IMG/VR virus record: IMGVR_UViG_3300029267_001596
Coordinates: 1-64,000 of that record
Direction: 5' to 3' (one strand)
From: a virus
DNA length: 64,000 nucleotides
Shown here: positions 10,879 through 53,414 of the stretch, piece after piece
Layout of the letters: the number at the start of each line of letters is the position of its first letter
Position numbering within the stretch: position 1 is the first letter of the stretch
Position numbers and translations under genes: made by a program
The notes under the pieces: model-generated
Seen by the model: only the letters and a program-made list of their open reading frames with translations
Database searches by the model: none
Told to the model about the DNA's origin: nothing

Positions 10879-10951
10879 TGCTCGTCCTGAACTCCTTTCT
10901 CCCAGGGGCGGCCGCCCTGTCACGGCCGCCCCGGAAATAGGGTGATGGGGG

Positions 10952-24059: not shown

Positions 24060-24527
24060 TTAGTGCAGAATGGGTGCGTGGTTCTCTTCTGGGACACCCC
24101 AGATGGGGACGGTGTAATCGGTCAGCTTCGGTTCCCGGTACGGCCCAGGCAGGTCAGTGATCCGCACATAGACGTACTGGGGTCCGGGGACGACATCGCC
24201 GCTCAGAGTCCAGTTGCCGGCGTCGTCGTACGTAACAGTCCAGCCCAGCGTGCGGCTCTCGATGATGACCGAGTCATTATCTTTATCGCACCACGTCCCA
24301 GCGCGATTGAGCTTCCCGGCCGGCACCGCATAGTCAAACGTGTTAGGGTCCGTGACGATCGGCGGAAGGATGATGCCTATTACCGTGTTCGGGTCGGCCC
24401 AGTCTGGTGCGGCATAGAACTGCTGTTCGCAGGGCTCATTCGGTTCGGCCAGTACGACCATCGGCCGTGCCATACAACCCATCGTCAGCAAGAGAGTCAG
24501 GAATAGAAAGCGTCTAATCGAAATCAT
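24060..24527 (-). CDS. putative lipoprotein
   Basis: 155 residues. Signal with possible lipobox (LLLTMGC, Cys18). The mature part has Cys pairs and an Ig-like beta pattern (VTDPNTFDYAVPAGKLN, TWCDKDNDSVIIESR, YVYVRITDLPGPYREP). It overlaps the fibre gene by 14 bp. Function unknown. Confidence 0.7.
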   Translation of the reverse strand: MISIRRFLFLTLLLTMGCMARPMVVLAEPNEPCEQQFYAAPDWADPNTVIGIILPPIVTDPNTFDYAVPAGKLNRAGTWCDKDNDSVIIESRTLGWTVTYDDAGNWTLSGDVVPGPQYVYVRITDLPGPYREPKLTDYTVPIWGVPEENHAPILH

Positions 24528-27500
24528 ATGTCACCTTTACGATAAACTGCGTGATCCCCGAATCCGGCTCGGCCCCGAACCGCAGGAACACGCACTTGCC
24601 GGAAGGAATGGTTGCATCGTCAAATCCCGCCGCAATGGAGGTCGTGCCATTGGTGGTATCTATCACATCGATCACCGTCGTATTGGCCTGTCCGATGAAC
24701 GCATCACAGAAGCACAGGTCGATGTCGAGTTCCGTGGCGGGATCCGCATCGCACGTCACCTCGATCTTCGTCACTGTGCAGGCCGCCGCCACACCGAGGT
24801 CAATGGGGATCTCGTGGTCGATGGCATAGGCCCCGTCAGGGTCCATAACAACGAACATCCAGTGCTTGTCCTCGCCTGCGGATCGGGACGGCATGGTCAT
24901 GGTCTTGCCGGAAAGGTCCAGGGTTGCAGCAAGTTCGCTCTCATCCACCGAACCGTCAGTGATGTCGTCGCCCGCCAGTGCATCGCCAGTCTGGAGGAAG
25001 TTGGATACATCCGACAGAACAGCGTACAACCCATCCTCGTTATTCAACTGCACCTCGAACGTGCTGTCGGCCGTGCCCTTGGCGTAGAAGTCCGTGTCTG
25101 CCTCTAGGTCCAACGACCCGCGCATCTGCGCGAAGGTCTGAGCCATCAATGTGCGCCCGTTGGCGCTGGCGTCCGATATGTCCGCCAAAGTCACTCCAGC
25201 CGGTTCGTAGGTTCCGTCATGGTCGTGCCCAGAGGTCGCATACGTCCCACTCAGGTCGGGAATGTTCCCGGAATGGATGTTCGTCGCGCCCTGATCACCC
25301 GTCCAGTCGATGTGCTCGTTGGCAACGAAGTCGCTGAACCCGTCGTGCGAGGCACTACCCGCCAGGACGATTGCCGTCCCCTCGATCGCCACCGCCCCTG
25401 CGCCAGTGCGCGTGAGGGTGGTATCGGAAGCATGCCCCAGTTCAATGGACGTGAACTGAGGCGAATCGCCCGTATCGAGACCCAACACAGCCCGCATCGC
25501 TGCGTAGTTGGCTGCCGCGTTGAAGGACTGAACATTGGCGCTCGGGGTGATACCCGCCCAAGTGGTCAAGTCGGCGTCCGCGTCCTGGAAGGCGCTGGCG
25601 CTCTCGCCGTCCAACAGATCGGCATTCAGGTTGGTACAGACCGTTGTAGAGGAGACCGTCAAGGGAGCCGTCCCGGTCGCCACATCAGAGATGAACCGCG
25701 GGGCCGTGATGTAGTAGGCCCCCACGTCCCAGTTGGCCGTCAGAGGGATTGTGCCGTCCGCCTTGAGGTCGCCTGCGCCGCCGCTGCCGTTTGATGCCGC
25801 AGTGACCCGCCCATCGGCGTCCACAGTGATGCTGGCAAGTGTGTAGCTGCCCGGCGTCACGGCCGTGGATGCGAGTTCGTCCGAGTCAACTGTCCCGGTC
25901 TTGATCGTCGCCGTCACCACATTGGCCGCGTTCGTGAAGTTGATGTCCCCGCCGTCCTGGAAGTCAGGATCAACAGTCGCCCCGCTATCAACTGAAACAC
26001 TGTCGCCACCGGCTGCACCAGCTTGATTCACAAATGACAGATTCCCTGCACCGTCCGTTTGGATGACTTGCCCACTTGATCCATCGGCAGAGGGCAGTGT
26101 ATAGGTGGTAGTGCCAATGTCTGTAGATGGCACTTGGATGCGGATGAAATCTATGCCGTGATCGCTGTCCTCAAAGATACGTAGGAAGCCGCCGCCCGTG
26201 TCGCCGTAGCGGACATTAAGGCCCTGCGTTGCTTCACCCACGATATCCGCCCAGGTCCCAGGCGTTCCTGCCGCCGTGCATACCCAGCCCCTTGCGTAGC
26301 CCAATTCGCCAACGCCACTGAAATACCAATCTCCCGTCTTGTGCGTGCCAGTCGAAGGGGCAGAGGCAAGAGTGTAGTGAAGCTGAATCCGCGCCCCGCT
26401 GATGTATTCCGGCCAGATATAGTTGTCGCTGCCGTAGGTGTTCCCGAAGATCTTCCGCGTACCGGTGGTCAGATCATGGATCAAGCCGTTCGTGACCGAC
26501 GAACCTGCACCGGAAATGATCGACGCCGTGAGATCCGAGATCCGCGTTAGATAGCAATTCAGGTTCAGCTTGACCAGCGAATCGGCCGTGTTGCCTCCAG
26601 CCAGATATCCATAGATGCCGCGAACACAGTTGCCGTTGTGGTTGGCGTGAATCTCCAGGTATGGCCCCGTACAGCCCCCCTCAAAGTGCAGGTCTTCACA
26701 TCGATTGTAATGCCCGTCAATTGTAAACGCCGCATCGCTGGACGATCCACAACTGGAGAACAGGAGATTACTCAACAGGCTGCCAGAGCCGTCCAGGTAA
26801 ATGCCCTCTTTAGTGCAAGTCCAGACCTCGATGTTATCAAGCACACCAGCGTTCGCATTAATCTTGAGTCCAATACCGGTGACGTTCCGGATGAACACGT
26901 TCTCCATCCTTGCGACCGCCCCGAAGGCCGTCCCGTTATATCCGAGGTAAACCAATGCGGTAGTAATCGTGTTGTCATTGCCGTGGAACCCGATATTCTC
27001 GATGATGATGTTCGCGGAGCTGGTGTCATCAGTAATCAGCGCTCCAGTCTGGCCGGAGACCTGCTTGATATAGGTGTGGCCCTCATCAGACCCAAGCAAT
27101 TTGCATCCCGCAGGCAGAACAAGCTGAGTTGCCATGAAGGTGCCGTCAGGGAAGAAGACTACGCCGTCACCACCTGCTGCGTCAATCGCTGCTTGGATTG
27201 CTGCGGTGTCGTCCGTGGAGCCATCGCCGGTTGCGCCAAAAGCTTTAACATTATAGACAGTCGGCACCATCGCCGTATCGAAGAATGTCCCGCCCAACTG
27301 CTCATGCCGCATGAACTGACAGTTTGTTCCGGCACCAAGACTGTACGTAACCCCAGTTGCGTTGTAGATGAGGTTATCCCAGACAACGCAGTTCGTGCCA
27401 CCCGCATCCAAGGTGATGCCATCTTGGACGGTGCAGATTGTATTATCTGAGATCTTTATGTCACGCATGTCCCCGGTCGCGTGTTTTGTCGCCTCAATCC

Positions 27501-29214
27501 CGTGTTCGATCTCTGCCAGTCCAACGCCAGATATGACGTTACCGATGATCTGGTGCTCTCTGTTTCCCGTTACGGCCGAACCACCGAGAAAGATACCAAC
27601 ATGACTGGCGCTGCTCTCGTCGCTGCCGAGCGAGTGACCCGTCTCACTCGTGTCCCCGCCAGCGACCCCGGCAATCAGGTTGTTGATGATCTGGACGCGA
27701 CGCACCTTGGGGTAGGCGAGGATGCCGTACTTGCCGCCGATGTCATAAAGCTGGTTGCCCTGGACACGCCAGTTGACGATGCTTGTCCCGGCGTTGATGA
27801 GGGCGATCCCGTTACAGCCCACGCCCTTGATGATATTGTTGGCGACGACCGTGTCGCCGGCCCAAATCATAACACCACTGGCCTCCAGTGCCGCGGTGTC
27901 TTGAGTGATTGTATTGCCGGTAATCGTGGAGTTTTCGCAGTCCGCCTTGACATTGATGACCCCCTGAGCGCACTCGCAATCGAGAAACGCGTTATTGGAA
28001 ACCACCGCCCGGCCGACGTCTCGGATATAGACCGCTTCACAGTTCGTAGGATCGGTCTGGGCGATGTTCTCGAAATGGTTCCCAGTGATAATCGCATCAG
28101 TCGCCTCGTGGACCATAACCCCCTTGGTCTCGGTAGTGGCGCCGCCCACGATATCGTGGAAATGGCAGTTGGTCACAGTGAGACGCTCCCTGCCCGTTGA
28201 CGGAGTTGTGTCCAGTCCGTACCAGATGCCCAATACGCCCATGCCTGCGACCTTGTGCGAGAGATTGGAAAACGTGCAATTCGTGACGGTGGTATTGGTC
28301 ATCACCTGAGACGTCAACCACAAGCCTTGATTGCCGTCATCGAACACGCAGCCGTCCACAAGCAAATCAGCAAACCCACCCGTCGTCGTATCGAAGTACA
28401 TGCCGTACTGCATGTCCTCGAACCGGCAGTCTTTCAGCGTAATCTTGTCGATAGTGGTCGCCAGGGTGGTGCAGGTGAAGAGCGTATCGAACGACTTGAT
28501 CGTCACGCCCTGGACGTGTAGTTCGTCCCTAACCTCCAGGAAGTCCACATCACCACTGTCACCCGGCCCGACAATGACCGTCTGGGCCGCGCCGTCGCCA
28601 ACGATTCGCAGGTTGCCGCCCGTGACCGTAAAGGCACTCCATGTCGCCAGAGAGTACGTGCCAGCCGGCAAATACAGTGTCGCGCCGCTGGATACCGCCG
28701 CTGCATGAGCGGCGTTGATTTCAGTCGTGCAGTCCGTTGCTCCAGTGTTGTCGGCGTTGTATGGGGCTTCGGTCACGTCGATCATGTGCTGCTTCTGGAG
28801 GTCGAGGAGGTCGCGCATCTCTGCCGCCGTGCGTTTGAGCACCAGGGACCGGCCCAGATTGCTGTGCGGGATCGCCACCGGACGCGCCGGCTGGGCATGG
28901 AGGGCCGGCGCCAGCAGGCAGGCGAATACTGCGACCGCCAGGATGCTCCGGGCAAGATCGCCCTGGCATGGCCGAGCCCTCTCTGCTATACTACACGTAT
29001 GGTCTCCCGGAGGATTCGTCGCACCGTTCGTATCGCTCGCCTTGTGGCGGTCGAGTTGCACTATCTGCTGCTGTATATGGGCAGCTTCCCGATCCTGATA
29101 CCCTACAACCTCTTCCGCGCATTCCTGGTTGACCCTGTCCTTGAGCGGTTGAGCCCACGCTTTCGCACGCGCGAAGAGGCCGAAGAACTGAAGCGTTTGA
29201 TCGAATAGGTTCAT
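24514..29214 (-). CDS. large fibre/tail-spike protein with two pectate-lyase-type helices and internal signal sequence
   Basis: About 1,566 residues from the ATG at 29212-29214, which overlaps the upstream stop (ATGA) and has AGGGGGC 7 nt before it. Two parallel beta-helix regions: one opening at NTGATDCTTEINAAH and one at FGATGDGSTDDTAAIQAA, both in the pectate-lyase_3 style, followed by a long fibre with repeated Gly/Ser/Asp strands. Residues ~95-118 (SILAVAVFACLLAPALHAQPA) look exactly like a Sec signal peptide, but no start codon exists in frame nearby. Fibres are normally cytosolic, so the signal is odd. Receptor binding or polysaccharide degradation is the expected role. Confidence 0.82.
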   Translation of the reverse strand: MNLFDQTLQFFGLFARAKAWAQPLKDRVNQECAEEVVGYQDREAAHIQQQIVQLDRHKASDTNGATNPPGDHTCSIAERARPCQGDLARSILAVAVFACLLAPALHAQPARPVAIPHSNLGRSLVLKRTAAEMRDLLDLQKQHMIDVTEAPYNADNTGATDCTTEINAAHAAAVSSGATLYLPAGTYSLATWSAFTVTGGNLRIVGDGAAQTVIVGPGDSGDVDFLEVRDELHVQGVTIKSFDTLFTCTTLATTIDKITLKDCRFEDMQYGMYFDTTTGGFADLLVDGCVFDDGNQGLWLTSQVMTNTTVTNCTFSNLSHKVAGMGVLGIWYGLDTTPSTGRERLTVTNCHFHDIVGGATTETKGVMVHEATDAIITGNHFENIAQTDPTNCEAVYIRDVGRAVVSNNAFLDCECAQGVINVKADCENSTITGNTITQDTAALEASGVMIWAGDTVVANNIIKGVGCNGIALINAGTSIVNWRVQGNQLYDIGGKYGILAYPKVRRVQIINNLIAGVAGGDTSETGHSLGSDESSASHVGIFLGGSAVTGNREHQIIGNVISGVGLAEIEHGIEATKHATGDMRDIKISDNTICTVQDGITLDAGGTNCVVWDNLIYNATGVTYSLGAGTNCQFMRHEQLGGTFFDTAMVPTVYNVKAFGATGDGSTDDTAAIQAAIDAAGGDGVVFFPDGTFMATQLVLPAGCKLLGSDEGHTYIKQVSGQTGALITDDTSSANIIIENIGFHGNDNTITTALVYLGYNGTAFGAVARMENVFIRNVTGIGLKINANAGVLDNIEVWTCTKEGIYLDGSGSLLSNLLFSSCGSSSDAAFTIDGHYNRCEDLHFEGGCTGPYLEIHANHNGNCVRGIYGYLAGGNTADSLVKLNLNCYLTRISDLTASIISGAGSSVTNGLIHDLTTGTRKIFGNTYGSDNYIWPEYISGARIQLHYTLASAPSTGTHKTGDWYFSGVGELGYARGWVCTAAGTPGTWADIVGEATQGLNVRYGDTGGGFLRIFEDSDHGIDFIRIQVPSTDIGTTTYTLPSADGSSGQVIQTDGAGNLSFVNQAGAAGGDSVSVDSGATVDPDFQDGGDINFTNAANVVTATIKTGTVDSDELASTAVTPGSYTLASITVDADGRVTAASNGSGGAGDLKADGTIPLTANWDVGAYYITAPRFISDVATGTAPLTVSSTTVCTNLNADLLDGESASAFQDADADLTTWAGITPSANVQSFNAAANYAAMRAVLGLDTGDSPQFTSIELGHASDTTLTRTGAGAVAIEGTAIVLAGSASHDGFSDFVANEHIDWTGDQGATNIHSGNIPDLSGTYATSGHDHDGTYEPAGVTLADISDASANGRTLMAQTFAQMRGSLDLEADTDFYAKGTADSTFEVQLNNEDGLYAVLSDVSNFLQTGDALAGDDITDGSVDESELAATLDLSGKTMTMPSRSAGEDKHWMFVVMDPDGAYAIDHEIPIDLGVAAACTVTKIEVTCDADPATELDIDLCFCDAFIGQANTTVIDVIDTTNGTTSIAAGFDDATIPSGKCVFLRFGAEPDSGITQFIVKVTYDFD
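28963..28992 (+). promoter_or_regulatory. promoter candidate for an antisense leaderless ORF
   Basis: CTGGCA, 18 bp, TATACT, whose expected start of transcription is base 28999, the A of an ATG. It reads opposite to the fibre gene. Only a sequence match. Confidence 0.3.
28999..29208 (+). CDS. possible antisense small membrane protein
   Basis: 69-residue frame on the plus strand inside the fibre gene: basic start (MVSRRIRRTVRIARLV), a hydrophobic stretch (YLLLYMGSFPILIPYNLF) and a charged end (RTREEAEELKRLIE). A promoter-like TATACT box would give a leaderless mRNA starting at its ATG. The natural look of the sequence argues for it; the strong evidence for the opposite gene argues against it. 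Confidence 0.3.
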   Translation: MVSRRIRRTVRIARLVAVELHYLLLYMGSFPILIPYNLFRAFLVDPVLERLSPRFRTREEAEELKRLIE

Positions 29215-32200
29215 CGCGACGCCCCCTGTGATTGTTGAATCAATGCTTTTACCCGCCGTCGCCGCTCCTGGCTGCGAGCGCGATTTGCCTGCCGCTCCAG
29301 AACGCTTAGACGGCTCCATTCGGTGAAATCGGCGGGCGTGAGGTCCTTCAGAGCCCGCTTGATCCGCTCGGCCTTCTCCTCCTTGCCCTCGTGCGCGACC
29401 CATTTGTCCGGCTCGCGCAGTGCGGTCTTGCGGGAGTCGGCATAGGTCACATCAGCCAGCGCCAGCAGCTTCTCCGGGTTGGTCATCATTCGATAGGGGT
29501 TCTCGTGCTCGCGCAGGGCCCTCTGGACCGGCCAGTACAGTTCCTGAGTCGGGCCCGGCAACGGGACTCCGGCCAGTTGGGCGACCACAATAGCCGCTTC
29601 CGCCGCCGCGTCCTCAGCGTGCCCGCGCCACTTGAGTTCGCCCTTTCGCGGCCCGCTCTGGAACCGCTCCTGACTGGCGATCTCCTGGGCGATCTGGGGG
29701 CCCTTGTCAAAGGCCAAACTGTAGGAGTCCGCGAACATCTGACCGATCGGATCGTCGTATGGCTCAGCCTTCCACACGTGCTCGCCGCGCGTGCGCTTGA
29801 GCGCCAACTTCAAACCGCTCTGGAGATGCTGGCCCCCCGGCATAAGACTCAGGAGATTCCCCGCCGTGTCCTCGGCCAGCTTGCCTGCCAGTCGCCGTCG
29901 CTCGCCTTTACTGGGTCCCTCCTTGTCGTCCGGGTCAATCACTCCCAGGGCTACCAGCGCGGCGACAGAGCCTGTATACAGCCCGTATCGCAGGCCCCAC
30001 TTCCAGGCGGCGATCAGGGCGTTGGCGGCGATAACGCCTCCGACCTCCTGGGAATACTGCCAGCCCCCCTTACCGCCACCCTTGGCAAGGCTGTTGTTCG
30101 CCCGCAACAAAACGTTCCACTGCTTCTCTCGCGCTGACCGGAACATCAGGCCGAGCCGCAGCCACAGACTGGGCGACCCGGACAGTACGCTCCGGTTGAG
30201 CATATCCCACATCGGTTGGGTGCGGCGCGTGACGTACTCGGTGCGACGAATGACCGCCTCGTCGAAGGCCTCGCCCTTCAGTTCGGGATGCAGAGCACGG
30301 GTCTCCGCTTCAGCGGCCGCGTGGATATGGGCGATGGCGGCCTGGTCGCCCCAGACCAGGCCTTTCATCGGCTTCTCCAGGATCGGGCTCTTGTCCCAGA
30401 CCAGCGTTTCCATGGTGTGCTGGGCCATGAGCGAGCCGACCTCAACGTTGATCTTCTTACCCGTCCACCGCTCCCAGAGAACAGGTGACAGTTCCTTCAT
30501 CTTCTTGACGCGAGCGAGCACCTGCGCCTTGGTCAGGGCCTTGAGGAAGTAGCGCGGCTTGATCTCGCTCTGAGCGACCGGGGCGCTGAGGATCTGATTG
30601 CCGACCGTACTGATCCGCAGGCCCAACACGCTGCGCGCGAATTTGCTCAGCAGCTTCTGGCCGGCCATCTCGGCCACCGACTGATCGGTGCGGTAGCCCT
30701 GCACGCGACGCAGAATGGTGAGCGCTGCGCTGACCAGGTCCTGATGACCTGCCTTGCGCATGGCGTCCTGCCATTCGGAGGTGTTGACGATCGAGCGCAG
30801 GTTGCGCATCGGTACGGCCATGCCGTAGTAGGTCGCGGCCGTCTGGATGTTGTTGACTACTTCTTGAGTGAAAGGACGAATCTCGATGCGCTGGGTCCCA
30901 CCTGTTCGTGGCTGGAACGGCCCGGAGTCCTCAATCGCCACATCACTGATCCGCCCGGACATCTTGCTCGGCAGCGCCCGGTGGATCCGCCAGTGGTTCG
31001 GGTTGGTCGCCAGTTCGTAGCCTTCCAGACGCAGAGCGACTTCATTGATGCCCGGGGCCAGGATCTCGTTGTTCAGATCGGTGTACAGGTCGCAGAACGC
31101 GCGCTGCTTGTCGCTCAGTTGGTCCACGGCCTGGTTGAGCTGCGCCAGGTCTTTGAAGGCGGGCAGCAACTCCCCTTTGAGCCGATGGCCGGTGGTCGTC
31201 ATGAACCGTTCGACGTTGTCGGGGTTCTGCAGGTGCATGTACAGGTCCATGACGTACTCGACAGGCACCTTGCGTTTGACGGCGCCGCTCTCAATCTCGA
31301 CGGTGTCCTTCTGGAGTGCCTTGAAGTCCTGATGAGTGAAGCCGATCTCGTCGACCCCTTCTTCGATCATTACAATCGCCCTGCGAATCAGATCGGCGCG
31401 CTTGCGCCACCCGTCATTGAGCGCATCACTGAACAACCTCCGCGTCTGGGTGTCGCCGGATCGGGTCATCAGTTCGGCCAGGGTATCCAGATGGGCCGAA
31501 TCGGTTTTGAGGACGCGACGAGCGACCTTCCGGGCCGGCTTGCGAATCTCCTGGGGCAAGCCCTCTAGATCTCTCGCCGTCCGGCGGACCGCCTCTTTGG
31601 TCGGCACAACTTCGTCCAGCATGGCCTTGAGCACCGCGTCCCGCTCCCGGGCCTCGTTCTCTTCGAATATCTGCCGCGATGTCTCGTATTGGTGGACGAT
31701 GTACTTGAGCGTGCTGGTAATGGCACGGATATCGTCGGCGGTCATGCTGCGAATCGACGTCTGGCCCAGTCGGGCCATCTCCTTGATCCGTGCCTCAGGA
31801 ACGTCGAGCAGCATTGCGCCCGTCGCCGGGTCGATCTGCTGCATGGTGGTGCCCAGCTCGCGAGCGAGCTTGCTGATCCGCCGTCCGAGGGTCTCCAGTT
31901 GGACACGCTTGACCGCGGAGATATCCTTAAGCTGGATGCCGCCCATCAGCTTCTCGATTCGATCCCGCGCCGCTTTGTCAAGCTTACCCAGCTTCGCCTG
32001 ACCGCGTCGATAGTCCTTCTGGATCTTCTTCCAAGTCGCCTTCAGTTCAGCGATCGCTGCTCGCTTGTCGTTGCCCCGCAAGACCTCTTCTGTCTTGGCG
32101 ATGACCTTGCCCAGGTCCTTGAGATTGGTCTTGGTCCGGGCCTTAGGGTTGACCCTCTGCAGGATCGAAAGGAACCGATGCTGATCGGCCTTGGGGACGT

Positions 32201-35200
32201 TCTTTCTCACGTAGTCGAACAACTCGGCCCCGATAGCGATCAGGTCGGCGTTCTCGGCCTTGAGCCGGTTCTTGAACTGTTGGAGTTTCGACAGATGGCG
32301 TTGACTGACCTTCGGATGCTCGCCGTAATCAAACGCCTCCTCGATCGTCGGGCTGGCCTGCTTGACGTACCGGACCTGGTCCCGGATCGGCTGCGACATG
32401 TCCACGAGTGTGTAATGGCCCTTGGCCGGCGGTTTCGGACGGGTCTGGAACTTGCCCGTGGAGCCCTGGACCACGTACATCGGACGACCCAACTTGCCGG
32501 ACGCCTTGATGGCCCGATCCACGGCGTTGCGCCGGCTCTTCCAGTTGATCGACGCGGCGCCGACGGAGACCTGGTAGCCCGGCCCCTCACTGCCGATCGA
32601 ATGCGTCTGGCGCAGATAAGTGACGGTCTCGGAGTCGAGGCCGTAGTCCTCCTGCATGACCTGGAGTGCCTTGCTGATCGCCGCGTTGATATCACCCACA
32701 TCCTCCCGGTCGGCCAGCATGTTGCGCTTCAGAAGAAGGAGTTCGAGTTCCGGATCGCCCCCCTGGGCGGCCTGTTCGGCCAGGGCCTGATCGAACTTGG
32801 TCTTTCCAGTCTTGCCCTGGGCCGCCACGGCCCCCTTGAGTCGCTCGAGGAAGCCGTTGATATCGCCCGGCCAGCCCATCTCCTGGGCCGCCTCGTCCCA
32901 ATGCTGGCCCCGGTTCTTGTCGTGGGTGACGTACTGCCCGAGTTCGCTCTTGTAATCGCCCGCCGCGGTCCGCTTCTCGCCCGCGTAGGCCTCGACCTCA
33001 CCTTTGTACCGTTCGGGGATATAGTAGCGCGTCAGGCCGACGCTCGTAAACGACTCTTCCGAAGCCTGCTCCTGGGCCAGTGTGTAGAGAGGATGATTCT
33101 TAATCGCCTTGGTGGTCTTGCCCATCGCAGCGCGGCGTTTGCTTTCGGTGAACGCGCTGCCCTGTGTCTCTGCGTCCCGCGGTTCTCCTGGTGCTTCTGA
33201 GCCGCTCCCTTCGCCAGGCGATGGCTGGTGAGCGGTGTGCGTTGCAGGTTTTTCAATCACCACCATACGAACACTGACGCCCGTCTGGCGGAAAGACTCC
33301 TTGCCGGTGAACGACTTGGCGGGCAGTCTCTCACTCGTACCGTCTACCTCTTCGAGCCACTCTCGGAACTGCGTAGCTTTCTTGTCTGACCGGGTGAACG
33401 AGCCCTCGCTCATCAATGCGACCACACGGCCGCCCGGTTCGAGCAGGTCGTACGCATGACGTACGTGCTCGATGTCCTGGCCCTTCTCGTAGGGAGGGTT
33501 CATCACGATTCGGTCGTACTTGCCCTCGAACTCCATGAAGTCTCGTGCAACGGGCTGGTATCCCTTCAACGCCAGAATGTCGCCCAACGACGAACTCGTT
33601 TCGACGGTATCGGGAGCGATCCCCGTCTCCTGCTTGATGACGTCGGCTAGATCGCCCTTACCGGCGGACGGCTCCAGGACCTTCATGCCCTCTTCGATCT
33701 CGGCGGACTCGACCATGCGCTTGCCTACGGTGGCCGGCGTCGGGAAGAAGCCGGGTATCTTGACCCCGATCAAAGCAGCCGTCTTCTCTCGGATCTTCTG
33801 GTCGGTCCTGGAGTCCTTAGGGGCGGGTTTCAATAGCGACCGGGCGTCATTGCGGGCTTTATCAAGATCAGCCTGACTGCGGATCCCCAACGCCCAGAAT
33901 CGCTTGCCTTGGGCCAGGTCTTCTCGTCCGAGTCGGGCGCCGTGCTTCCTGGCCACGCGTGTGAGCTGCTCCATCGCCTTGAGTTGTTCGGCCGTCCTGG
34001 GCTCGTAGCCGTAGGCGCCGTGGCGGGGTACACCCTTCAGTGCGTCCCGGATTGCCGGTGCGCCCGGTTTGCCCTTGATGGCTTTCAGGGCGTCGTCCAC
34101 AACGGATTTGTGCATCCAGGGCGGTGAGTAGGTCTGGGCCAGCACCGTCTCTGCGTCGGCCTTGGTCTTGACCTTGGCGAGGCTCTCGGGCAGGTCGCCC
34201 GCCTCGATTCGATCGGCAATAGCACGCAGAAGCTGCTGCACCTCCTGCATGCGCCGGCCCTGCTCCATCATGTTCCCAGCGATACTCGCCCGCCGCGCGG
34301 TGACGTTCTGCTGGCCGATCGCAGGGTTCAGCTTCGCCTCTATCTGGGAGTCCATCCGGTCCGCCAGGTCGCGCAACTTCCCGACCCGCTTCTCGTCAAC
34401 GGCCTGCTTGAGGGTCTTCTTGACAGGCGGAGCGTCCGTTACACCGGCCGCCGCCTGGGCCTCGGCGACCTTCGCAACCATCTCATTCCGCACCGCCTCA
34501 AGCTGATCGCCCAGCCGATCGACCTCCGCCTTTGTGCCGGGTTCGTCCTTGTTCGGTCCGAGTTCCAGGTCAGCGATGTCGTTTTCGACGCGCTGAAATT
34601 CCGGGTCGCTGTCGGCCAGGTACTCAAGAACGGCGTCCTGTATGTTGTCCGGTTTGTCGCTGGCTTCTGCCCAGTAGGCGTTGAAGGCTTGGATGGTTCT
34701 GGGGTCATGCGCCGTTTCGCTAGGCTGGGACGTCGCGGCCCTTTTTACCTGCCCAGCCACTGGCTGGTGAGGGGCCTGCTTGGAGGGAGATTGTATGCCG
34801 GGCGCTTCCTGCCCGGCGGTGCGGTCAAAAGAGGCGAGGGCTTCATTGACCTCCTCTTCAAACCTCATCACGATATCGGCTATGTTGGTATCGGTGACTT
34901 CCAGATCAATGTCGGGCTCGCGAAAGGCGCTCGCAGACAACTGGCCGCTGATGTGGTCTGACAGCCGGATTTTCAACAGCTCCGTTCGGGTGTGATTGGG
35001 TTCAATCTGCTTTATGGTTATGTACTGCGAATTGCCTGCGGCCGAAGTGTACTCCGCTATCTCAAGGCCGTTTGCTTCTGCCCATCTATCGAGTTCGCCA
35101 AGGTAGGCGTTATTCAGATGGCCTTTCGCATCCAAATACGGATGGCTTCTTATGCGGTCGCGGTGCGCCTCCCTCTTCTGCTGCCGGCGTCTCTCTTGCT

Positions 35201-38200
35201 CGTATGGGGTGCCGTACAGTCTCTCATCAGCAGACGCTTTCAGTGCGCGTATTTCTTCGGTTAGCCTATCGTATTCGGTTCGCTCTTTCGGGGTGAGGAA
35301 ATCGTCGGCGTCGTGGAGCGCCTTCCGTGTCAAGCGTTTCGCGTTGGGTTGCCCCCTGAACCGAGCCCTTATCGCCTGTTCGCCCTCCCGAATCGTTTGC
35401 GCGAACGGCTCGGCTTGCTCTCTTAATTCGCGGAGCTTCTTTTGGTCGTTTTCAATTTCTTGCTTCCGTCGCGCCGCCTGATCAGATAGAATTGGATCGG
35501 CTTCAGTTCTCTTGGATGCAGCTGCAATGACCTTGCGCCTGCCCTGTTCAGATTGCGATCTGATGTCAAGTTTGCTGAAGCCTTCTTCTTTTGTCCCTCC
35601 AGGCCGCTCGGGGTTCGGAGGCTGTTGCTCGCGGCCCACCCCTTTGTCTTCCGTCACGGGTTCTACTGTAGCAGATCCCTCCCCGGTATTCAAATTTTCG
35701 CCCGTTTTCTTTAATACGGGCTCGGCTGTTCTATTTTTCTTTAATGCCTGATCGGCCCACTCCGCGCCCTGGTACTCTTCTAGGACGTTGCGCGGGACAG
35801 GTTTTCCCTCCGATACGGCTTGCATGACGGCGTCGTAATGCGCCCTGCGTAGACTCGGAGCATCCTTGACCGAAACAAACGCCCCGGAATTATCGACAAA
35901 GCCAGAGACAAAGCCTTGCTGTTGGCCTACATCCTGAAGACCGCTTGGCACTTGATTCCAGTCATGGATTCTTCCGGTCGGTATAACCTCGTCACCGATT
36001 TTGAATGCCGCCTGAACATCCTGTTCAGCTCGATGAATTTGCTGATACTCTTCTCTCGTCATCTCCCAGGGCTGTGGGCTTTTTGTGGCTACATCCTTGG
36101 ACACTTTTTGCTCCGCCTCGGTTGTAACCTCTGGCGGGGTCGCGACTTCGTCAGGCACTGTTTTGGGCGTAACCTCTGACATGTCGTGCGATGACAAGAC
36201 GATGCGGGCCGCCCTGGCGATAGCTGCGACATCCGCCGGTGCAGTACGGACCTCTTTGGGGCCCCCTTGTACCTGTCCTTTCTCGGCAGCCTTGGCATAC
36301 TTAGCGGCTATCTCAGACGCCAACGACGCGTCATCCAGAAGTCGCGTCGCGTCGCGTTGGATGCGGGGGGCCACAGAGTAATCAGAGAATTCATCAAGCG
36401 AGTTCTCAAGTGCAAGCAGGATGCGTCGGGCTGGTTCTGGCACATCACTGGTCTCCCCTGTTTTCGTGGATAGTTGCCGGGAAAGCACCGCCCGCGCCTC
36501 AGCGGGCGACATCTTCAACACCTCGGCCATGCCCTTGCCCGTCTTGTCCATGACGGACCGGACTTCGGTTTTGCTGAGGGGTTCTACTTGGCCTTCTGCG
36601 GCCTTTACTTGGACATCGGGGGCCTTTGGTTGGAGGTCTTCCTTTGGTTCCTGCGTCTCCTCCACCCCAGGGGCAGGAGCTTCAGGCTGCTCTGTGATAG
36701 ATGCCTTGGGCGGCGCAGCCGGTGGTGTGGCCGCCGGTGCCTGGGGCAGTGCTTCAGTAGTTGCCGTCCAGCCGTTCGGCAGAGCCTGGAACGTCGTCCC
36801 TGATGGGTACACCGCCTTCTGTGCACCCTCTGCGCTACGGACCACCACCACCTGCTCTTTTCCATGCCAACCTCCAGGCAGGGGCTTCTTACTCGGACCC
36901 AGGACCTCGTTCAGTTCCGAGCGCGCCTCACGAACGCCCGATTGGATGCGCTGACGGAGAGTCTTGGCATCCGGCTGTTTCGGGGCCTTGATCTGCGACA
37001 GTTGTTTGTGCGTCTTACCCGGTTCTCCAAACCGATAACCACGGTCCATCAGCTTTTGTGCTGCTTGCTGAGCCGTCATGCCCTGTCGCTGGGGTGCAAA
37101 TGCGTCGGCCGGCTGACGGTGGGCGTCGCGCTTGACGTGGTGCATGACGTCCTTGATCTTTCCCGCCTCCTGTCGGAGCAGGCGGGCGCTCATCTTGGCG
37201 GGCATCCCCTGTTTGACACGCACATGATGGCGATCGTAGGCCGCGCGGCGCATGGTGCTGTCCATGTCGCGCAGGTACTTCTGTTGCTGCTTGATGCTCC
37301 AGGCGTTGAAGGCGACCGGCAATAGTGCGGCAATGGCAATATCCTCACCACTTCCACCCTGCGCGGCGGTCTTGCCGGCGAACAGGGCGGACTCGGCGGC
37401 TGTCTTGCCGACCTTGCCTGCCAGGCTGGCCGTGGGGATCTGACCAATAGCACCCAAGGCCCCGCGTGTCGTCGCCCCTTCGCCAGGAAGTCCACCGTCC
37501 ATCTGAGTGACGATCTCCCAGGCAACGGCGTCGGGCAGGACCGTACCGGACGGCAGCAGCTTCTTGGCGACCATGACGCGACTGATGAACGCACCGAGAC
37601 CGGCTGTGATATCCACCGCCTTCTCGGCCTTTGTCTCGGCCGGCTCCACATCGAACGCCACTGAGCCCCGTTCTTTCTCCAGGGCCTGTTGGGTTTGGAC
37701 GGCCTTGGCGCGATGTTCCGGCTTCAGGGCCGCCAGCCAGCCGGAGGCGACCAGTTTCGGAACAGCCTTGAGCCCTTCCCAGAACGTGACCTTCTCCCCT
37801 TCGGGAGATAGACCCAGTCGTTCCGCTTCCTCTTGCCAGGCCAGCATATTCGTGACAGCGTTAACCGCCCCGGACGAGGGGCGGGCCTTCTCGATATCCT
37901 CCAGAATGGCCTTGTTGCCGAACTGCTTGCCCGCGCGGCCGGCAAGACCTCCGACCTTCTGTTGGACGGCCCCAGCGATCGGAGACGGCTCGAAGTAGTC
38001 AGAGATACCCCGGATCGGCCGAGCCTCGTCCAGGGCCCTGTTGAACAGATCGACCGGAACGCGACCCTGGTCGCTGCGCATGTAGTCCTGTTGTTCCGCT
38101 TCGCCCAGGCTACCCGGCTCGGGCGTCAGGAAGTCGGCTACGACGTTGCGCATCGTCTGGGCCCTGTCCGGGCCAACGATCTTCTCCGTCGCCTCGTCCA

Positions 38201-38312
38201 GCGACCGACCGGCCCGGACGGCCCGCATCGTCTCGGCGCGCCGTGATGGCTGAGCCGGCGGCTGGGCGGCTGGTGTGCCCGTCATGGACCTTAGCTTCTC
38301 AAGCCTGGACAT
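29211..38312 (-). CDS. giant polyvalent internal virion protein with embedded DNA adenine methyltransferase domain
   Basis: 3,033 residues, the largest gene here, placed between internal virion genes and the fibre. Residues ~1520-1680 are a SAM-dependent methyltransferase: FFPTPATVGKRM, VLEPSAGKGDLAD and NPPYEKG are the motif X/I/IV series of N6-adenine enzymes. The C-terminal ~700 residues recall large polyvalent-protein domains (LPD38 style) with AEIRPF-like stretches and a hydrophobic segment near 2750-2790. The rest is charged, helical and linker-like. Such proteins are ejected with the DNA (DarB, polyvalent proteins) and protect it or prepare the cell. No frameshift is visible across 9.1 kb. 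Confidence 0.8.
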   Translation of the reverse strand: MSRLEKLRSMTGTPAAQPPAQPSRRAETMRAVRAGRSLDEATEKIVGPDRAQTMRNVVADFLTPEPGSLGEAEQQDYMRSDQGRVPVDLFNRALDEARPIRGISDYFEPSPIAGAVQQKVGGLAGRAGKQFGNKAILEDIEKARPSSGAVNAVTNMLAWQEEAERLGLSPEGEKVTFWEGLKAVPKLVASGWLAALKPEHRAKAVQTQQALEKERGSVAFDVEPAETKAEKAVDITAGLGAFISRVMVAKKLLPSGTVLPDAVAWEIVTQMDGGLPGEGATTRGALGAIGQIPTASLAGKVGKTAAESALFAGKTAAQGGSGEDIAIAALLPVAFNAWSIKQQQKYLRDMDSTMRRAAYDRHHVRVKQGMPAKMSARLLRQEAGKIKDVMHHVKRDAHRQPADAFAPQRQGMTAQQAAQKLMDRGYRFGEPGKTHKQLSQIKAPKQPDAKTLRQRIQSGVREARSELNEVLGPSKKPLPGGWHGKEQVVVVRSAEGAQKAVYPSGTTFQALPNGWTATTEALPQAPAATPPAAPPKASITEQPEAPAPGVEETQEPKEDLQPKAPDVQVKAAEGQVEPLSKTEVRSVMDKTGKGMAEVLKMSPAEARAVLSRQLSTKTGETSDVPEPARRILLALENSLDEFSDYSVAPRIQRDATRLLDDASLASEIAAKYAKAAEKGQVQGGPKEVRTAPADVAAIARAARIVLSSHDMSEVTPKTVPDEVATPPEVTTEAEQKVSKDVATKSPQPWEMTREEYQQIHRAEQDVQAAFKIGDEVIPTGRIHDWNQVPSGLQDVGQQQGFVSGFVDNSGAFVSVKDAPSLRRAHYDAVMQAVSEGKPVPRNVLEEYQGAEWADQALKKNRTAEPVLKKTGENLNTGEGSATVEPVTEDKGVGREQQPPNPERPGGTKEEGFSKLDIRSQSEQGRRKVIAAASKRTEADPILSDQAARRKQEIENDQKKLRELREQAEPFAQTIREGEQAIRARFRGQPNAKRLTRKALHDADDFLTPKERTEYDRLTEEIRALKASADERLYGTPYEQERRRQQKREAHRDRIRSHPYLDAKGHLNNAYLGELDRWAEANGLEIAEYTSAAGNSQYITIKQIEPNHTRTELLKIRLSDHISGQLSASAFREPDIDLEVTDTNIADIVMRFEEEVNEALASFDRTAGQEAPGIQSPSKQAPHQPVAGQVKRAATSQPSETAHDPRTIQAFNAYWAEASDKPDNIQDAVLEYLADSDPEFQRVENDIADLELGPNKDEPGTKAEVDRLGDQLEAVRNEMVAKVAEAQAAAGVTDAPPVKKTLKQAVDEKRVGKLRDLADRMDSQIEAKLNPAIGQQNVTARRASIAGNMMEQGRRMQEVQQLLRAIADRIEAGDLPESLAKVKTKADAETVLAQTYSPPWMHKSVVDDALKAIKGKPGAPAIRDALKGVPRHGAYGYEPRTAEQLKAMEQLTRVARKHGARLGREDLAQGKRFWALGIRSQADLDKARNDARSLLKPAPKDSRTDQKIREKTAALIGVKIPGFFPTPATVGKRMVESAEIEEGMKVLEPSAGKGDLADVIKQETGIAPDTVETSSSLGDILALKGYQPVARDFMEFEGKYDRIVMNPPYEKGQDIEHVRHAYDLLEPGGRVVALMSEGSFTRSDKKATQFREWLEEVDGTSERLPAKSFTGKESFRQTGVSVRMVVIEKPATHTAHQPSPGEGSGSEAPGEPRDAETQGSAFTESKRRAAMGKTTKAIKNHPLYTLAQEQASEESFTSVGLTRYYIPERYKGEVEAYAGEKRTAAGDYKSELGQYVTHDKNRGQHWDEAAQEMGWPGDINGFLERLKGAVAAQGKTGKTKFDQALAEQAAQGGDPELELLLLKRNMLADREDVGDINAAISKALQVMQEDYGLDSETVTYLRQTHSIGSEGPGYQVSVGAASINWKSRRNAVDRAIKASGKLGRPMYVVQGSTGKFQTRPKPPAKGHYTLVDMSQPIRDQVRYVKQASPTIEEAFDYGEHPKVSQRHLSKLQQFKNRLKAENADLIAIGAELFDYVRKNVPKADQHRFLSILQRVNPKARTKTNLKDLGKVIAKTEEVLRGNDKRAAIAELKATWKKIQKDYRRGQAKLGKLDKAARDRIEKLMGGIQLKDISAVKRVQLETLGRRISKLARELGTTMQQIDPATGAMLLDVPEARIKEMARLGQTSIRSMTADDIRAITSTLKYIVHQYETSRQIFEENEARERDAVLKAMLDEVVPTKEAVRRTARDLEGLPQEIRKPARKVARRVLKTDSAHLDTLAELMTRSGDTQTRRLFSDALNDGWRKRADLIRRAIVMIEEGVDEIGFTHQDFKALQKDTVEIESGAVKRKVPVEYVMDLYMHLQNPDNVERFMTTTGHRLKGELLPAFKDLAQLNQAVDQLSDKQRAFCDLYTDLNNEILAPGINEVALRLEGYELATNPNHWRIHRALPSKMSGRISDVAIEDSGPFQPRTGGTQRIEIRPFTQEVVNNIQTAATYYGMAVPMRNLRSIVNTSEWQDAMRKAGHQDLVSAALTILRRVQGYRTDQSVAEMAGQKLLSKFARSVLGLRISTVGNQILSAPVAQSEIKPRYFLKALTKAQVLARVKKMKELSPVLWERWTGKKINVEVGSLMAQHTMETLVWDKSPILEKPMKGLVWGDQAAIAHIHAAAEAETRALHPELKGEAFDEAVIRRTEYVTRRTQPMWDMLNRSVLSGSPSLWLRLGLMFRSAREKQWNVLLRANNSLAKGGGKGGWQYSQEVGGVIAANALIAAWKWGLRYGLYTGSVAALVALGVIDPDDKEGPSKGERRRLAGKLAEDTAGNLLSLMPGGQHLQSGLKLALKRTRGEHVWKAEPYDDPIGQMFADSYSLAFDKGPQIAQEIASQERFQSGPRKGELKWRGHAEDAAAEAAIVVAQLAGVPLPGPTQELYWPVQRALREHENPYRMMTNPEKLLALADVTYADSRKTALREPDKWVAHEGKEEKAERIKRALKDLTPADFTEWSRLSVLERQANRARSQERRRRVKALIQQSQGASR

Positions 38313-40196: not shown

Positions 40197-40352
40197 TTAC
40201 GCGTCCGCCTTCTCGTCGTGCAGGCGCTCAATCTCGCGGTGGATGTCACGCAAGTGCTCTTGCAGATACAGCGCCATCTGCCGGGCATACTCGGCGGGGT
40301 CGCCGTTGAATTCCGGGCCGGGTCGCGGTTCCGGTATCTCCTTCGTGCTCAT
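40197..40352 (-). CDS. short coiled-coil protein
   Basis: 51 residues from the ATG at 40350-40352, coupled to the upstream stop (ATGA). Pro/Glu-rich start (STKEIPEPRPGPEFNGDP) then one long helix (YARQMALYLQEHLRDIHRE). It is between virion genes; a small structural or regulatory partner is likely but unproven. Confidence 0.6.
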   Translation of the reverse strand: MSTKEIPEPRPGPEFNGDPAEYARQMALYLQEHLRDIHREIERLHDEKADA

Positions 40353-42058
40353 AATGGCGCCCCCACAGGTGGGTTGATGACCATCTTCTTGACGACCAGA
40401 CTGCTGCCGGCGTAGTTGGCGATCCGGAACTGGATCTGATCGCTGGTGACGTTCAACTCGAACCCGTAGCTCTGGTAGGCATCCGTCAGGGTTGTGGGCG
40501 AGAACGCCACCCACCCTTCATCGTTGGTCTCGAACGAATCGATTCGATAGCTGACCCGCATGGCCGAACCTTTGGCCACGAGGTAGAGCATCGACCACCA
40601 CTTCTCGACTCCGGGCGCACCGAAATCGAAGACCTTGCTGTTCGAGACGGCGACGATATTGGTCCCGTCATCGGCGGTCAGCGTCTCGTCCACCTGGTAG
40701 ACGTAGCCGCTGTCGTCCGCGACCATCAACCCGTCGTCGGTCAGGACGGTGTCAATCAACTGATCCCACGTGGTGCCGGCGGCGATCGCCTGGGTGTACG
40801 TCTTGGCCTCATTGATATCCTGCTGCCAGGTTTTGCCGGTGACATAACTCTGTCCGCCCATCAGTGCGGCGGCCACGATGCCGTGCGATGCGTCGTACAG
40901 ATGCTCGAAATCGCGAATCGTCCAGGAACCGTCGATGGCGTCAACCCCGTACGCCCGCGTCGGATACGCATAGCCAGGCCGCACGACAAAAATCCAGATC
41001 ATGCGACCGTTGGCGTCCACGCTCATACGGCAGCGGTTCAGCTTGGCTGGGTCGATGTCCTCCTGGAGCGACTCGAAGACCTGCTTGCCGATCGGGTCCA
41101 TCGTCGTGCCCCCGGTATACCGGTACAGCTGATAGTCGCTGCCGACCAGATAGTGTGCGTTCTTCCAGGGGACGATCAACGGGGCGGCCAACAGACCCAA
41201 ATTCGGGATCTGCAGTCTTGCCATGAGCGCCGGATCGGAGTTGACGTGGTAGAGGTACCAGATTGAATTGTCCTGATAGACGATCAGTTGCGAGGCCCCC
41301 AGCGCAGCGCACCAGAGGTTTTGGCCGCCGGTGTCCATCAGTGCGACGTATCCCGCCCCGGTATCGGTGATCGTAAAGGCCGTACCGCTGGCGGCCGTCT
41401 CCACCTTCCCCGGCTTGCCCCACAGAACGGTCTGAGGGTTTTGAATGAACTCGTCGCTCGCCGCGTTCCAGGTCTTCGGGTTCAGGAGGATAACATGATT
41501 GAAGAACGTGTTGACCTGGGCGGCGTAATGGGCGGTCGGGGTCGCGGGGTCGGCATCCGTCTCATGGTAGCCGTCCGCGCCCGCCAGTTCGTGGAAGGTG
41601 TCCTCGAACTTGCCCGCCCATCGGTAGATCGGACTCTCCCCGCCGTCGCAGGCCAGCAGATGGTAATAGCACGCCGTCCCGTCCTCGGTGATCGCGTCGG
41701 TGTGGGGAATGCCCACGAACGAGGGGATGCTGTCGGGCCCGGCGTTCAGCCCAGACGAAGGGCTGATATCGGCCCAATCGTCGGCTAGAGAGTCCCACCG
41801 CCACAACTTGCGGCGCGTCATGGCGACGACGTGGTCTGTCGGATTGCGCGACTGCTCCTGGTAATGGCACAGGCCGAGCAAGGCGGTATCCAGAGGCAGG
41901 CCGGAGGCGGCGAATTTGGCGAAGCCGGGGGCCGTCTTCATGGCGCCCCGCGTGAACAGCATGTTCCGCGCGAACGCCATCTGCCCATCGGCGATCTCGC
42001 TGGCCGGGTCGTAGGTGTTGAGGCCTCGACCTAAATTGTTGATCGTCAGCCCACTCAT
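40349..42058 (-). CDS. minor virion/tail protein
   Basis: 569 residues, beta-rich. Opens MSGLTINNLGRGLNTYDPAS, contains repeated blade-like strands (HLLACDGGESPIYRWAGK, AALGASQLIVYQDNSIWYLY) and a C-terminal beta part. Length and place match podovirus tail-tube or stabilisation (gp10-type) proteins, which often fold as propellers. I assign only as tail-region virion protein. Confidence 0.72.
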   Translation of the reverse strand: MSGLTINNLGRGLNTYDPASEIADGQMAFARNMLFTRGAMKTAPGFAKFAASGLPLDTALLGLCHYQEQSRNPTDHVVAMTRRKLWRWDSLADDWADISPSSGLNAGPDSIPSFVGIPHTDAITEDGTACYYHLLACDGGESPIYRWAGKFEDTFHELAGADGYHETDADPATPTAHYAAQVNTFFNHVILLNPKTWNAASDEFIQNPQTVLWGKPGKVETAASGTAFTITDTGAGYVALMDTGGQNLWCAALGASQLIVYQDNSIWYLYHVNSDPALMARLQIPNLGLLAAPLIVPWKNAHYLVGSDYQLYRYTGGTTMDPIGKQVFESLQEDIDPAKLNRCRMSVDANGRMIWIFVVRPGYAYPTRAYGVDAIDGSWTIRDFEHLYDASHGIVAAALMGGQSYVTGKTWQQDINEAKTYTQAIAAGTTWDQLIDTVLTDDGLMVADDSGYVYQVDETLTADDGTNIVAVSNSKVFDFGAPGVEKWWSMLYLVAKGSAMRVSYRIDSFETNDEGWVAFSPTTLTDAYQSYGFELNVTSDQIQFRIANYAGSSLVVKKMVINPPVGAPL

Positions 42059-47272: not shown

Positions 47273-48316
47273 TTAGGCCACAACGTTGGGCAGGTAGATG
47301 CTCCGGTTCGGGTGCTTGCAGATCAGGTTGCCGCTGAACTTGATGCGGGCCAGTTTGAAGTCCGCACCGTTGGCGATCTGCGACTGATCGAAGAAGGGGA
47401 GCATCTTGAAGTTGGCCTTCGGGTGGACCAGGAAGTGCCAGTCGGGGATGTTGAGCCCGTAGAGCCGGCGCTCCATCGCTCCGGCCGTCCCGGCCGTCTG
47501 GCCCATGACGGTGTTGTACTTGCTCTTGAGGAACGGCTCCTTCACGATGCGGCAGCCGTCGACCTCGATCTCCTCGATGCCCCACTTCATCAGGCCGCGC
47601 GGATCCACCTTCTTCGGCAGCGACCGCGCCTCGGCCTCAGCCAGGATCGCCAGCCAGAGCGTGCCGCCCATGACCCAGACGAACTCCTTGTCCGTCTCCA
47701 GGTCGGTCAGCGGCTCCTGCCACTGGCGCAGGCGCGTCAGGCTGATCGCGTACTCCTGGGCGTAGCTGGAGGGAGTGAACTGGTTGTCCGCCGGCTGCCA
47801 CCAGTCACGGACGTTCGAGGCATTGGTCCGGGCCAGCGTGCCGTAGGTGCTGTCGGGGACCAGGGCGGAGTTGAGGCCCTGGACCTGCTTGGCCGTATCG
47901 GTGGCCGCACCGAAGATGAGCTTGCGCAGGTGCAGCCGCGTGCCCTCCTGGGCCTTCTTGACCTTGAACTTCGCCAGGTTGTGCAACTGGGTGCGGTCCT
48001 CGGTCTCGTAGGCGTTCTCCAGGTCCTCCTCGAAGTCGAGGGTGATCGGCAGTTGGAAATGCTTGCGCCGGAAGTAGGCCGTGTCGGTCACTTCCTTGGT
48101 GCCGTGCGTCAGTTGCTCGTTGACCCCGTAGTCCTGAGCGAGATCCTCGACCGTGTCGGTGTCCATCTCGAAGAAGTAGCGCTTGCCGCCTTTGAACTTG
48201 CGGTTCTGACGCTCGAGAATCAAATCGAGTACCGGGGTCTTCCGCATGATTTCGACTTCCATCGACGCGTCGTGCATGTCGCGCGTCAGGTTGTCGAGGT
48301 CCTGATGGAATCCCAT
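47273..48316 (-). CDS. major capsid protein
   Basis: 347 residues. Follows the scaffold gene and precedes decoration genes. GGKRYFFEMDTDTVEDLAQD, LPITLDFEEDLENAYETED, a charged spine helix region and a C-terminal beta part (FLVHPKANFKMLPFFDQSQI) fit an HK97-fold capsid protein. No obvious N-terminal delta domain, consistent with a separate scaffold. This is the main shell subunit. Confidence 0.8.
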   Translation of the reverse strand: MGFHQDLDNLTRDMHDASMEVEIMRKTPVLDLILERQNRKFKGGKRYFFEMDTDTVEDLAQDYGVNEQLTHGTKEVTDTAYFRRKHFQLPITLDFEEDLENAYETEDRTQLHNLAKFKVKKAQEGTRLHLRKLIFGAATDTAKQVQGLNSALVPDSTYGTLARTNASNVRDWWQPADNQFTPSSYAQEYAISLTRLRQWQEPLTDLETDKEFVWVMGGTLWLAILAEAEARSLPKKVDPRGLMKWGIEEIEVDGCRIVKEPFLKSKYNTVMGQTAGTAGAMERRLYGLNIPDWHFLVHPKANFKMLPFFDQSQIANGADFKLARIKFSGNLICKHPNRSIYLPNVVA

Positions 48317-53404: not shown

Positions 53405-53414
53405 GTTCGATACC

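What the first reader, a model, noticed from the sequence alone, without database searches (positions are those of the whole stretch)
29211..38312. 3,033-residue polyvalent protein with an embedded adenine methyltransferase
The largest gene is part of the virion block and holds a full SAM methyltransferase of N6-adenine type (FFPTPATVGKRM, VLEPSAGKGD, NPPY) about halfway. A virion enzyme injected with the DNA would protect the genome at entry. The domain lies in an otherwise unassigned frame of nearly 3,000 residues that may hide more enzymes.
Basis: partly seen in the sequence, partly recalled or inferred. Interest (0 to 1): 0.75.

Follow-up and report, generated by a model that had tools for sequence, protein, structure and literature searches.

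The report
Giant phage virion protein carrying DNA-methylase
The longest gene of this uncultured phage makes a 3,033-residue protein, probably packed in the virus particle, with an intact DNA-adenine methylase in its middle; such giant methylase-bearing phage proteins are already known, so this is a new, fairly ordinary example.

Summary
Window 29211-38312 is one uninterrupted 3,033-codon ORF on the minus strand, in a tightly packed late operon (terminase, portal, capsid, SU10-type adaptor, head-closure-like protein, giant, tailspike). Residues ~1517-1690 form a complete gamma-class N6-adenine methyltransferase. All catalytic motifs are conserved across 121 non-redundant homologues; AlphaFold pLDDT is 96-98; the closest solved folds are type I HsdM subunits (EcoKI) and M.TaqI. 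It follows a helical domain (1292-1516), as in HsdM. The same module sits mostly in giant phage proteins: 124 of 171 host ORFs exceed 1,000 aa. One relative, phage H66 gp60, is annotated as mass-spectrometry-verified in virions; Salisaeta phage SSIP-1 gp43 is annotated as structural.

I found no second enzyme: no SNF2 helicase, zincin, ART, transglycosylase or RNA polymerase. The C-terminus is a helical module shared with a few other methylase-bearing giants. So it resembles the methylase arm of DarB-type polyvalent proteins but fails DarB's helicase criterion. Protection of entering DNA is the likeliest role, but it is inferred; virion location and activity of this protein are untested. The genome also encodes two free DNA methyltransferases. 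Verdict: new member of a known kind.

The parts
29211..38312 (-). 3,033-aa giant protein gene, methylase-bearing (polyvalent-type)
   Evidence: stop TGA overlaps the ATG of the next gene (29214), 1-bp gap to the upstream gene
33243..33764 (-). gamma-class N6-adenine DNA methyltransferase core, residues ~1517-1690
   Evidence: PHROG 1e-71 to 1e-105; tblastn 237 phage records; pLDDT 96-98; Foldseek HsdM / M.TaqI; motif conservation
33714..33749 (-). motif X / TP motif FFPTPATVGKRM (1522-1533)
   Evidence: T1525 conserved in 119 of 121
33651..33680 (-). motif I (SAM binding) VLEPSAGKGD (1545-1554)
33489..33500 (-). motif IV NPPY (1605-1608), adenine catalytic motif
   Evidence: NPPF in 121 of 122 aligned, NPPY here
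33765..34439 (-). helical domain N-terminal to the methyltransferase (residues ~1292-1516), co-conserved with it, HsdM-N-like in position
   Evidence: tblastn HSPs starting at ~1292-1313 in many loci; high-pLDDT helices; Foldseek alignment to HsdM spans ~390 columns
29511..31802 (-). C-terminal helical module (residues ~2171-2934), shared with other methylase-bearing giants
   Evidence: phrog_28077 E 2.8e-33; L100 and L149, E 2e-32 and 2e-29; weaker profile match in L046 and L085
34443..38312 (-). residues 1-1290, no detectable homologue or known domain
   Evidence: residues 1-560: no phage tblastn match; residues 1-1290: no phmmer match in fetched loci; GC3 drops to 0.57-0.62 at residues ~600-1200
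24514..29214 (-). downstream tailspike/tail protein (pectate-lyase-like), start overlapping the giant's stop (ATGA)
   Evidence: Pfam PF12708 7e-22, PHROG tail, start/SD
40349..42058 (-). virion structural protein (phrog_3287), head-closure-like position
43095..44435 (-). SU10-type adaptor protein
   Evidence: PF24175 6.9e-15
47273..48316 (-). major head protein
   Evidence: phrog_9953 6.5e-11
51326..53437 (-). portal protein
   Evidence: phrog_156 2.9e-29
54854..56785 (-). terminase large subunit
   Evidence: phrog_2; tblastn to annotated terminase large subunits
5461..7062 (-). free C5-cytosine DNA methyltransferase
   Evidence: PF00145 6.9e-37
9997..10923 (-). free D12-class N6-adenine DNA methyltransferase
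   Evidence: PF02086 2.5e-14

Best explanation
A giant internal virion protein. The C-terminal helical module, and probably the N-terminal helical region, serve packaging into the particle and ejection. The central HsdM-like module methylates adenines of the entering phage DNA before or while host restriction enzymes scan it. It works like the methylase arm of phage P1 DarB and the DarB-like giants of Bcep22-type phages, but without their SNF2 translocase. Shown here: an intact, conserved methyltransferase fold inside a giant late-operon protein, and virion annotation of relatives. Inferred: that this protein is packaged, ejected, active, and anti-restriction in purpose.
For: Intact catalytic motifs, with non-pattern positions conserved (T1525 119/121, E1571 121/122). 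Confident fold, nearest solved structures type I HsdM and M.TaqI. Late operon with ATGA coupling to the tail gene. The methyltransferase clade lies mostly in giant ORFs: 124/171 over 1,000 aa, 99 over 2,000 aa; 86/121 over 1,000 aa after redundancy removal. H66 gp60 is annotated as virion protein by mass spectrometry, SSIP-1 gp43 as structural. Giants sharing this module also carry known polyvalent/Dar domains: ddrB-ParB, MuF_C, LPD38, DarA_C, ART. JC1's DarB-like giant was found in virions (PMC9144972). P1 DarB is a head protein; [quoted passage not shown]). Iyer et al. describe TaqI/EcoKI-type adenine methylases in polyvalent proteins (PMC5512222).
Against: No proteomics or activity data for this phage. 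The phage also encodes a free D12 adenine and a free C5 methyltransferase, so packaged DNA may already be methylated. No target-recognition domain is visible after the core: residues ~1712-1806 are low-confidence. For P1, physical shielding by Dar proteins has also been proposed instead of methylation (PMC12707154).
Confidence: 0.6

Rival explanations
1. Virion or assembly protein whose methylase acts inside the producing cell: it methylates phage DNA during late expression or packaging, so progeny leave already marked; injection is not needed for its enzymatic role.
For: Late-operon expression; two other free methyltransferases show that this phage modifies DNA intracellularly; some members of the same methylase clade occur in ORFs under 800 aa (29 of 121) and as a 710-aa protein in Cellulophaga phage phi17:2_18, so the domain can work outside a giant.
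Against: Most of the clade is fused into giant proteins, and relatives are annotated as part of the particle; a purely intracellular enzyme would not need this fusion.
Confidence: 0.2
2. Primarily structural/ejection protein (like podoviral internal virion proteins), in which the methylase is an accessory or DNA-binding module with little catalytic role.
For: Only ~175 of 3,033 residues are a recognised enzyme; the rest is mostly predicted helical, and the C-terminal module is shared with other giants.
Against: Catalytic residues are conserved far beyond what DNA binding needs, and the module is kept while flanks are replaced.
Confidence: 0.12
3. N4-like virion RNA polymerase (the phiC725A homologue was annotated 'putative internal virion polymerase').
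For: Annotation of phiC725A, based on similarity to an internal virion protein matching the N4 gp50 C-terminal domain (PMC5217972).
Against: No RNA polymerase family matches the window protein; in H66 the vRNAP PHROG matches only an N-terminal stretch, residues 103-612.
Confidence: 0.03

Closest known systems
Hollowayvirus giant proteins (Pseudomonas phages H66 gp60, LKA5 gp59, phiC725A_54; F116p59/p60)
   Same: Same methyltransferase (48% identity to H66 over ~230 aa; 37% to LKA5 in an alignment that spans its insert), similar size (3,787-3,863 aa), late region, H66 copy annotated as MS-verified virion protein.
   Different: No similarity found outside the methyltransferase region; H66 has LPD23, LPD3, two HExxH motifs and PLSRFG, the window protein none; H66 giant is followed by lysis genes, here by a tailspike gene.
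DarB (phage P1) and DarB-like giants of Bcep22-type phages (BcepIL02 gp70, JC1 gp69) and Parlo gp81
   Same: Gamma-class adenine methylase with an NPPF/NPPY-type motif in the giants compared, in a giant protein of the virion gene region.
   Different: No SNF2/SF2 helicase in the window protein, whereas DarB has one; methylase not detectably similar to DarB by BLAST and only weakly to BcepIL02 (E 0.05-0.07).
Polyvalent proteins of Iyer et al. 2017 (PMC5512222)
   Same: Size over 2,000 aa, late-gene context, TaqI/EcoKI-type adenine methylase with TP motif.
   Different: Only one enzymatic domain recognised here, and no helicase partner; in this methylase clade a motif-defined helicase was seen in only 5 of 124 ORFs over 1,000 aa.
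Salisaeta icosahedral phage 1 gp43; Vibrio phage 1.211 / vB_ValP_FGH and Thalassomonas phage BA3 giants
   Same: Same methyltransferase, 44-51% identity; SSIP-1 gp43 annotated structural; Vibrio/BA3 match also covers the preceding helical domain, residues 1292-1715.
   Different: Flanks outside residues ~1292-1715 are unrelated by BLAST; SSIP-1 protein carries a ParB_N domain.
Thermosipho-MAG locus L100 giant (3,348 aa)
   Same: Shares both the methylase module and the C-terminal module.
   Different: Carries a DarA_C domain not found in the window protein; C-terminal identity only ~24%.

Membership tests
Gamma-class N6-adenine DNA methyltransferase (TaqI/EcoKI HsdM type) | TP motif, SAM motif I, acidic residue after strand 2, NPP(Y/F) in the order X-I-II-IV | tested here: met
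   Residues 1522, 1545, E1571, 1605; conserved in homologues. Positions used as scan patterns are inflated by selection; TP and E1571 are not.
Gamma-class N6-adenine DNA methyltransferase (TaqI/EcoKI HsdM type) | Rossmann-like MTase fold closest to HsdM / M.TaqI | tested here: met
   pLDDT 96-98; Foldseek top hits 2okc, 2y7c, 7eew, 2ar0 (HsdM); 2adm M.TaqI 195 columns, rmsd 3.3, 22% identity
Gamma-class N6-adenine DNA methyltransferase (TaqI/EcoKI HsdM type) | Transfers methyl to adenine N6 in DNA | not testable with these tools
   needs biochemistry or modification-aware sequencing
Polyvalent proteins (Iyer 2017) | Giant protein in a late (virion) gene neighbourhood | tested here: met
   3,033 aa; terminase-portal-capsid-adaptor-giant-tailspike order
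Polyvalent proteins (Iyer 2017) | Two or more domains of different biochemical activity | tested here: inconclusive
   One enzyme plus helical modules; no other domain in Pfam/NCBIfam/PHROG/motif tests; residues 1-1290 unresolved
Polyvalent proteins (Iyer 2017) | Delivered into the host with the DNA | not testable with these tools
   only relatives are annotated as virion proteins
DarB family | SWI2/SNF2 helicase fused C-terminal to the methylase | tested here: not met
   no helicase family, no Walker A/DEAH pair in the window protein; P1 DarB has SNF2
DarB family | LPD36 helical domain N-terminal to the methylase | tested here: inconclusive
   a helical domain is there (residues 1292-1516), but the LPD36 model was not compared directly
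DarB family | Protects DNA in cis against type I restriction | not testable with these tools
   needs phage genetics with restriction-proficient and restriction-deficient laboratory hosts
Hollowayvirus H66 gp60 orthologue | Collinear similarity over the whole length | tested here: not met
   similarity limited to the methyltransferase region, residues 1470-1738
N4-like virion RNA polymerase | Single-subunit RNAP domain | tested here: not met
   no match

The most novel reading that the evidence does not exclude
This methylase clade (HsdM-like helical domain plus bare catalytic core, apparently no DNA-recognition domain, no translocase) forms a distinct helicase-free injected anti-restriction enzyme. 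It would either methylate adenines with little sequence specificity or borrow a specificity subunit (for example a host HsdS) to mark the entering DNA as self.
Probability: 0.12. Interest if true: 0.65.

Novelty: new member of a known kind. Interest (0 to 1): 0.33.

Why it matters
It shows that a specific, helicase-free adenine-methylase module travels between otherwise unrelated giant proteins of very different phages: podoviruses of Pseudomonas and Vibrio, a tailless Salisaeta phage, a Thermosipho-associated element. If injected and active, it would be a simple single-domain way to mark DNA as self at the moment of entry, testable in an existing laboratory phage (H66 or F116-like phages of P. 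aeruginosa PAO1).

Tried and rejected
Second hidden enzyme: Pfam, NCBIfam and PHROG scans, motif scans for helicase, zincin, lysozyme/SLT, GNAT, NUDIX and PLxRFG all negative or chance-level. RNA polymerase reading rejected. DarB membership rejected on the helicase criterion. PDB sequence search of the methylase and of the C-terminus: no match. tblastn of N-terminal, 1720-1990 and C-terminal parts against 50,697 phage records: none; at E up to 10 only a weak chance-like hit. Single-sequence scans of viral and genome contigs with the C-terminus and whole protein: none; profile scan with the C-terminus: none (poor seed patterns). C-terminal AlphaFold model too poor to search (mean pLDDT 42.7), so no fold search was run on it. 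A clustering script timed out and was replaced by BLAST linkage: 93 of 96 other C-termini are linked to each other, while L100 stands apart and shares the window's module. A full methyltransferase tree with DarB was not built.

Full report
What is there. The window is nearly all of a 64,283-base IMG/VR virus record. ORF 29211-38312 runs on the minus strand, 3,033 codons, ATG start, no internal stop. A stop-free run of this length has a chance probability of about 1e-32 at the window's stop-triplet frequency, and the codon-position GC pattern is that of a coding frame over most of the length; GC3 is lower at residues ~600-1200, which may mark a segment of separate origin. The gene abuts its upstream neighbour (1-bp gap), and its TGA overlaps the ATG of the downstream tailspike gene (ATGA at 29211-29214, with a GGGGG Shine-Dalgarno-like stretch).

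Surroundings. Reading in the minus direction: DnaB-like helicase, small terminase subunit, large terminase subunit, portal, major head protein, a small class I methyltransferase, SU10-type adaptor, a phrog_3287 virion structural protein, two unassigned genes, the giant, then a pectate-lyase-like tail protein. This is a virion block. Elsewhere the window holds a tyrosine integrase, a C5-cytosine DNA methyltransferase and a D12-class N6-adenine DNA methyltransferase, so the embedded domain is one of three DNA-methylase genes.

The methylase. Residues ~1517-1690 match PHROG families at E 1e-71 to 1e-105; Pfam gives only sub-threshold generic matches. tblastn finds 237 phage records, best in F116-like Hollowayvirus, then Vibrio, Shewanella, Salisaeta, Pseudoalteromonas, Thalassomonas and Cellulophaga phages. 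In 121 non-redundant homologues fetched here, T1525 of the TP motif is conserved in 119/121, E1547 and E1571 in 121/122, and N1605-P-P in 122/122; the window has NPPY where 121 have NPPF. Motif I and NPPF positions were used as scan patterns, so their invariance is inflated; the TP motif and E1571 were not. The AlphaFold model, built on 74 sequences, reaches pLDDT 96-98 across the core. Foldseek ranks type I restriction HsdM subunits first (2okc, 2y7c, 7eew, 2ar0), with M.TaqI at 195 columns, rmsd 3.3, 22% identity. The preceding helical domain (1292-1516) is co-conserved in many loci, in the position of the helical N-terminal domain of HsdM. No DNA-recognition domain is apparent behind the core: residues ~1712-1806 have pLDDT below 50.

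Where this domain lives. Of 171 loci with the domain, 124 carry it in ORFs over 1,000 aa and 99 over 2,000 aa; after redundancy removal 86 of 121 exceed 1,000 aa and 29 are under 800 aa. Fourteen such giants scanned with Pfam carry typical polyvalent domains: LPD38 (8), ddrB-ParB (4), InPase (3), MuF_C (3), LPD3 (2), ART-PolyVal (2), DarA_C (1); an SNF2-type helicase appears in one. By motif, a helicase pair occurs in 5 of 124 giants. This differs from the statement by Iyer et al. that polyvalent methylases are nearly always fused to an SF2 helicase (PMC5512222).

The rest of the protein. Outside the methylase the window protein shares nothing with H66, LKA5, L005, BcepIL02, Parlo or P1 DarB by BLAST. 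The C-terminal module (2171-2934) matches phrog_28077 (E 2.8e-33), a Thermosipho-MAG giant L100 and a Bacillota contig L149 at 22-24% identity, both of which also carry the same methylase, and more weakly L046 and L085. Its model is helical but of low confidence. No helicase, zincin, PLxRFG, ART, SLT or polymerase was found. Residues 1-1290 have no detected relative.

How it most likely works. Relatives put this module in the particle: H66 gp60 is annotated 'verified by mass spectrometry as part of the virion'; SSIP-1 gp43 is 'structural protein'; JC1's DarB-like giant was detected in virions (PMC9144972). P1 DarB is a head protein and Dar proteins are co-ejected and protect DNA in cis (PMC9024508, PMC12810830, PMC12707154). 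The best reading is an ejected virion protein whose methylase marks incoming DNA. Packaging, ejection, activity and purpose are inferred for this phage. The free methyltransferases, and the shielding hypothesis for P1 Dar, keep intracellular methylation or a structural role open.

Known or new. The arrangement (giant phage protein, virion gene block, embedded adenine methylase) was noted for phiC725A/H66 (PMC5217972) and generalised as polyvalent proteins (PMC5512222). The window protein is a new, divergent member. It fails the DarB helicase criterion and is not a collinear orthologue of H66 gp60.

Noticed in passing
window 5461-7062 (-) and 9997-10923 (-): Two further, free DNA methyltransferases (C5-cytosine PF00145; D12-class N6-adenine PF02086) in the same phage.
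   Followed up: no
window 45706-46317 (-): Small class I methyltransferase inside the virion block; a relative also lies upstream of the methylase-bearing giant in L017 and L096.
   Followed up: partly
L046:4709-17749: 4,347-aa phage giant with transglycosylase, a GGDEF diguanylate cyclase domain (GGEEF at residue 775), the same methylase and an ADP-ribosyltransferase: a possible virion-borne diguanylate cyclase.
   Followed up: partly
L004 (LKA5 gp59), L006: About 60-aa insert between motif III and NPPF of the methylase, absent from the otherwise very similar H66 gp60: a small domain polymorphic within Hollowayvirus.
   Followed up: no
L005:3803-13711: Giant with transglycosylase, a 2'-5' RNA ligase-like domain (weak match also to anti-CBASS Acb1) and the same methylase.
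   Followed up: no
L013 (SSIP-1 gp43): Salisaeta icosahedral phage 1 (tailless, from memory) carries the same methylase plus a ParB_N domain in a giant 'structural protein'.
   Followed up: partly
window 34700-36500 (-): GC3 falls to 0.57-0.62 at residues ~600-1200 of the giant against 0.69-0.84 in most of the rest, possibly an acquired segment.
   Followed up: no
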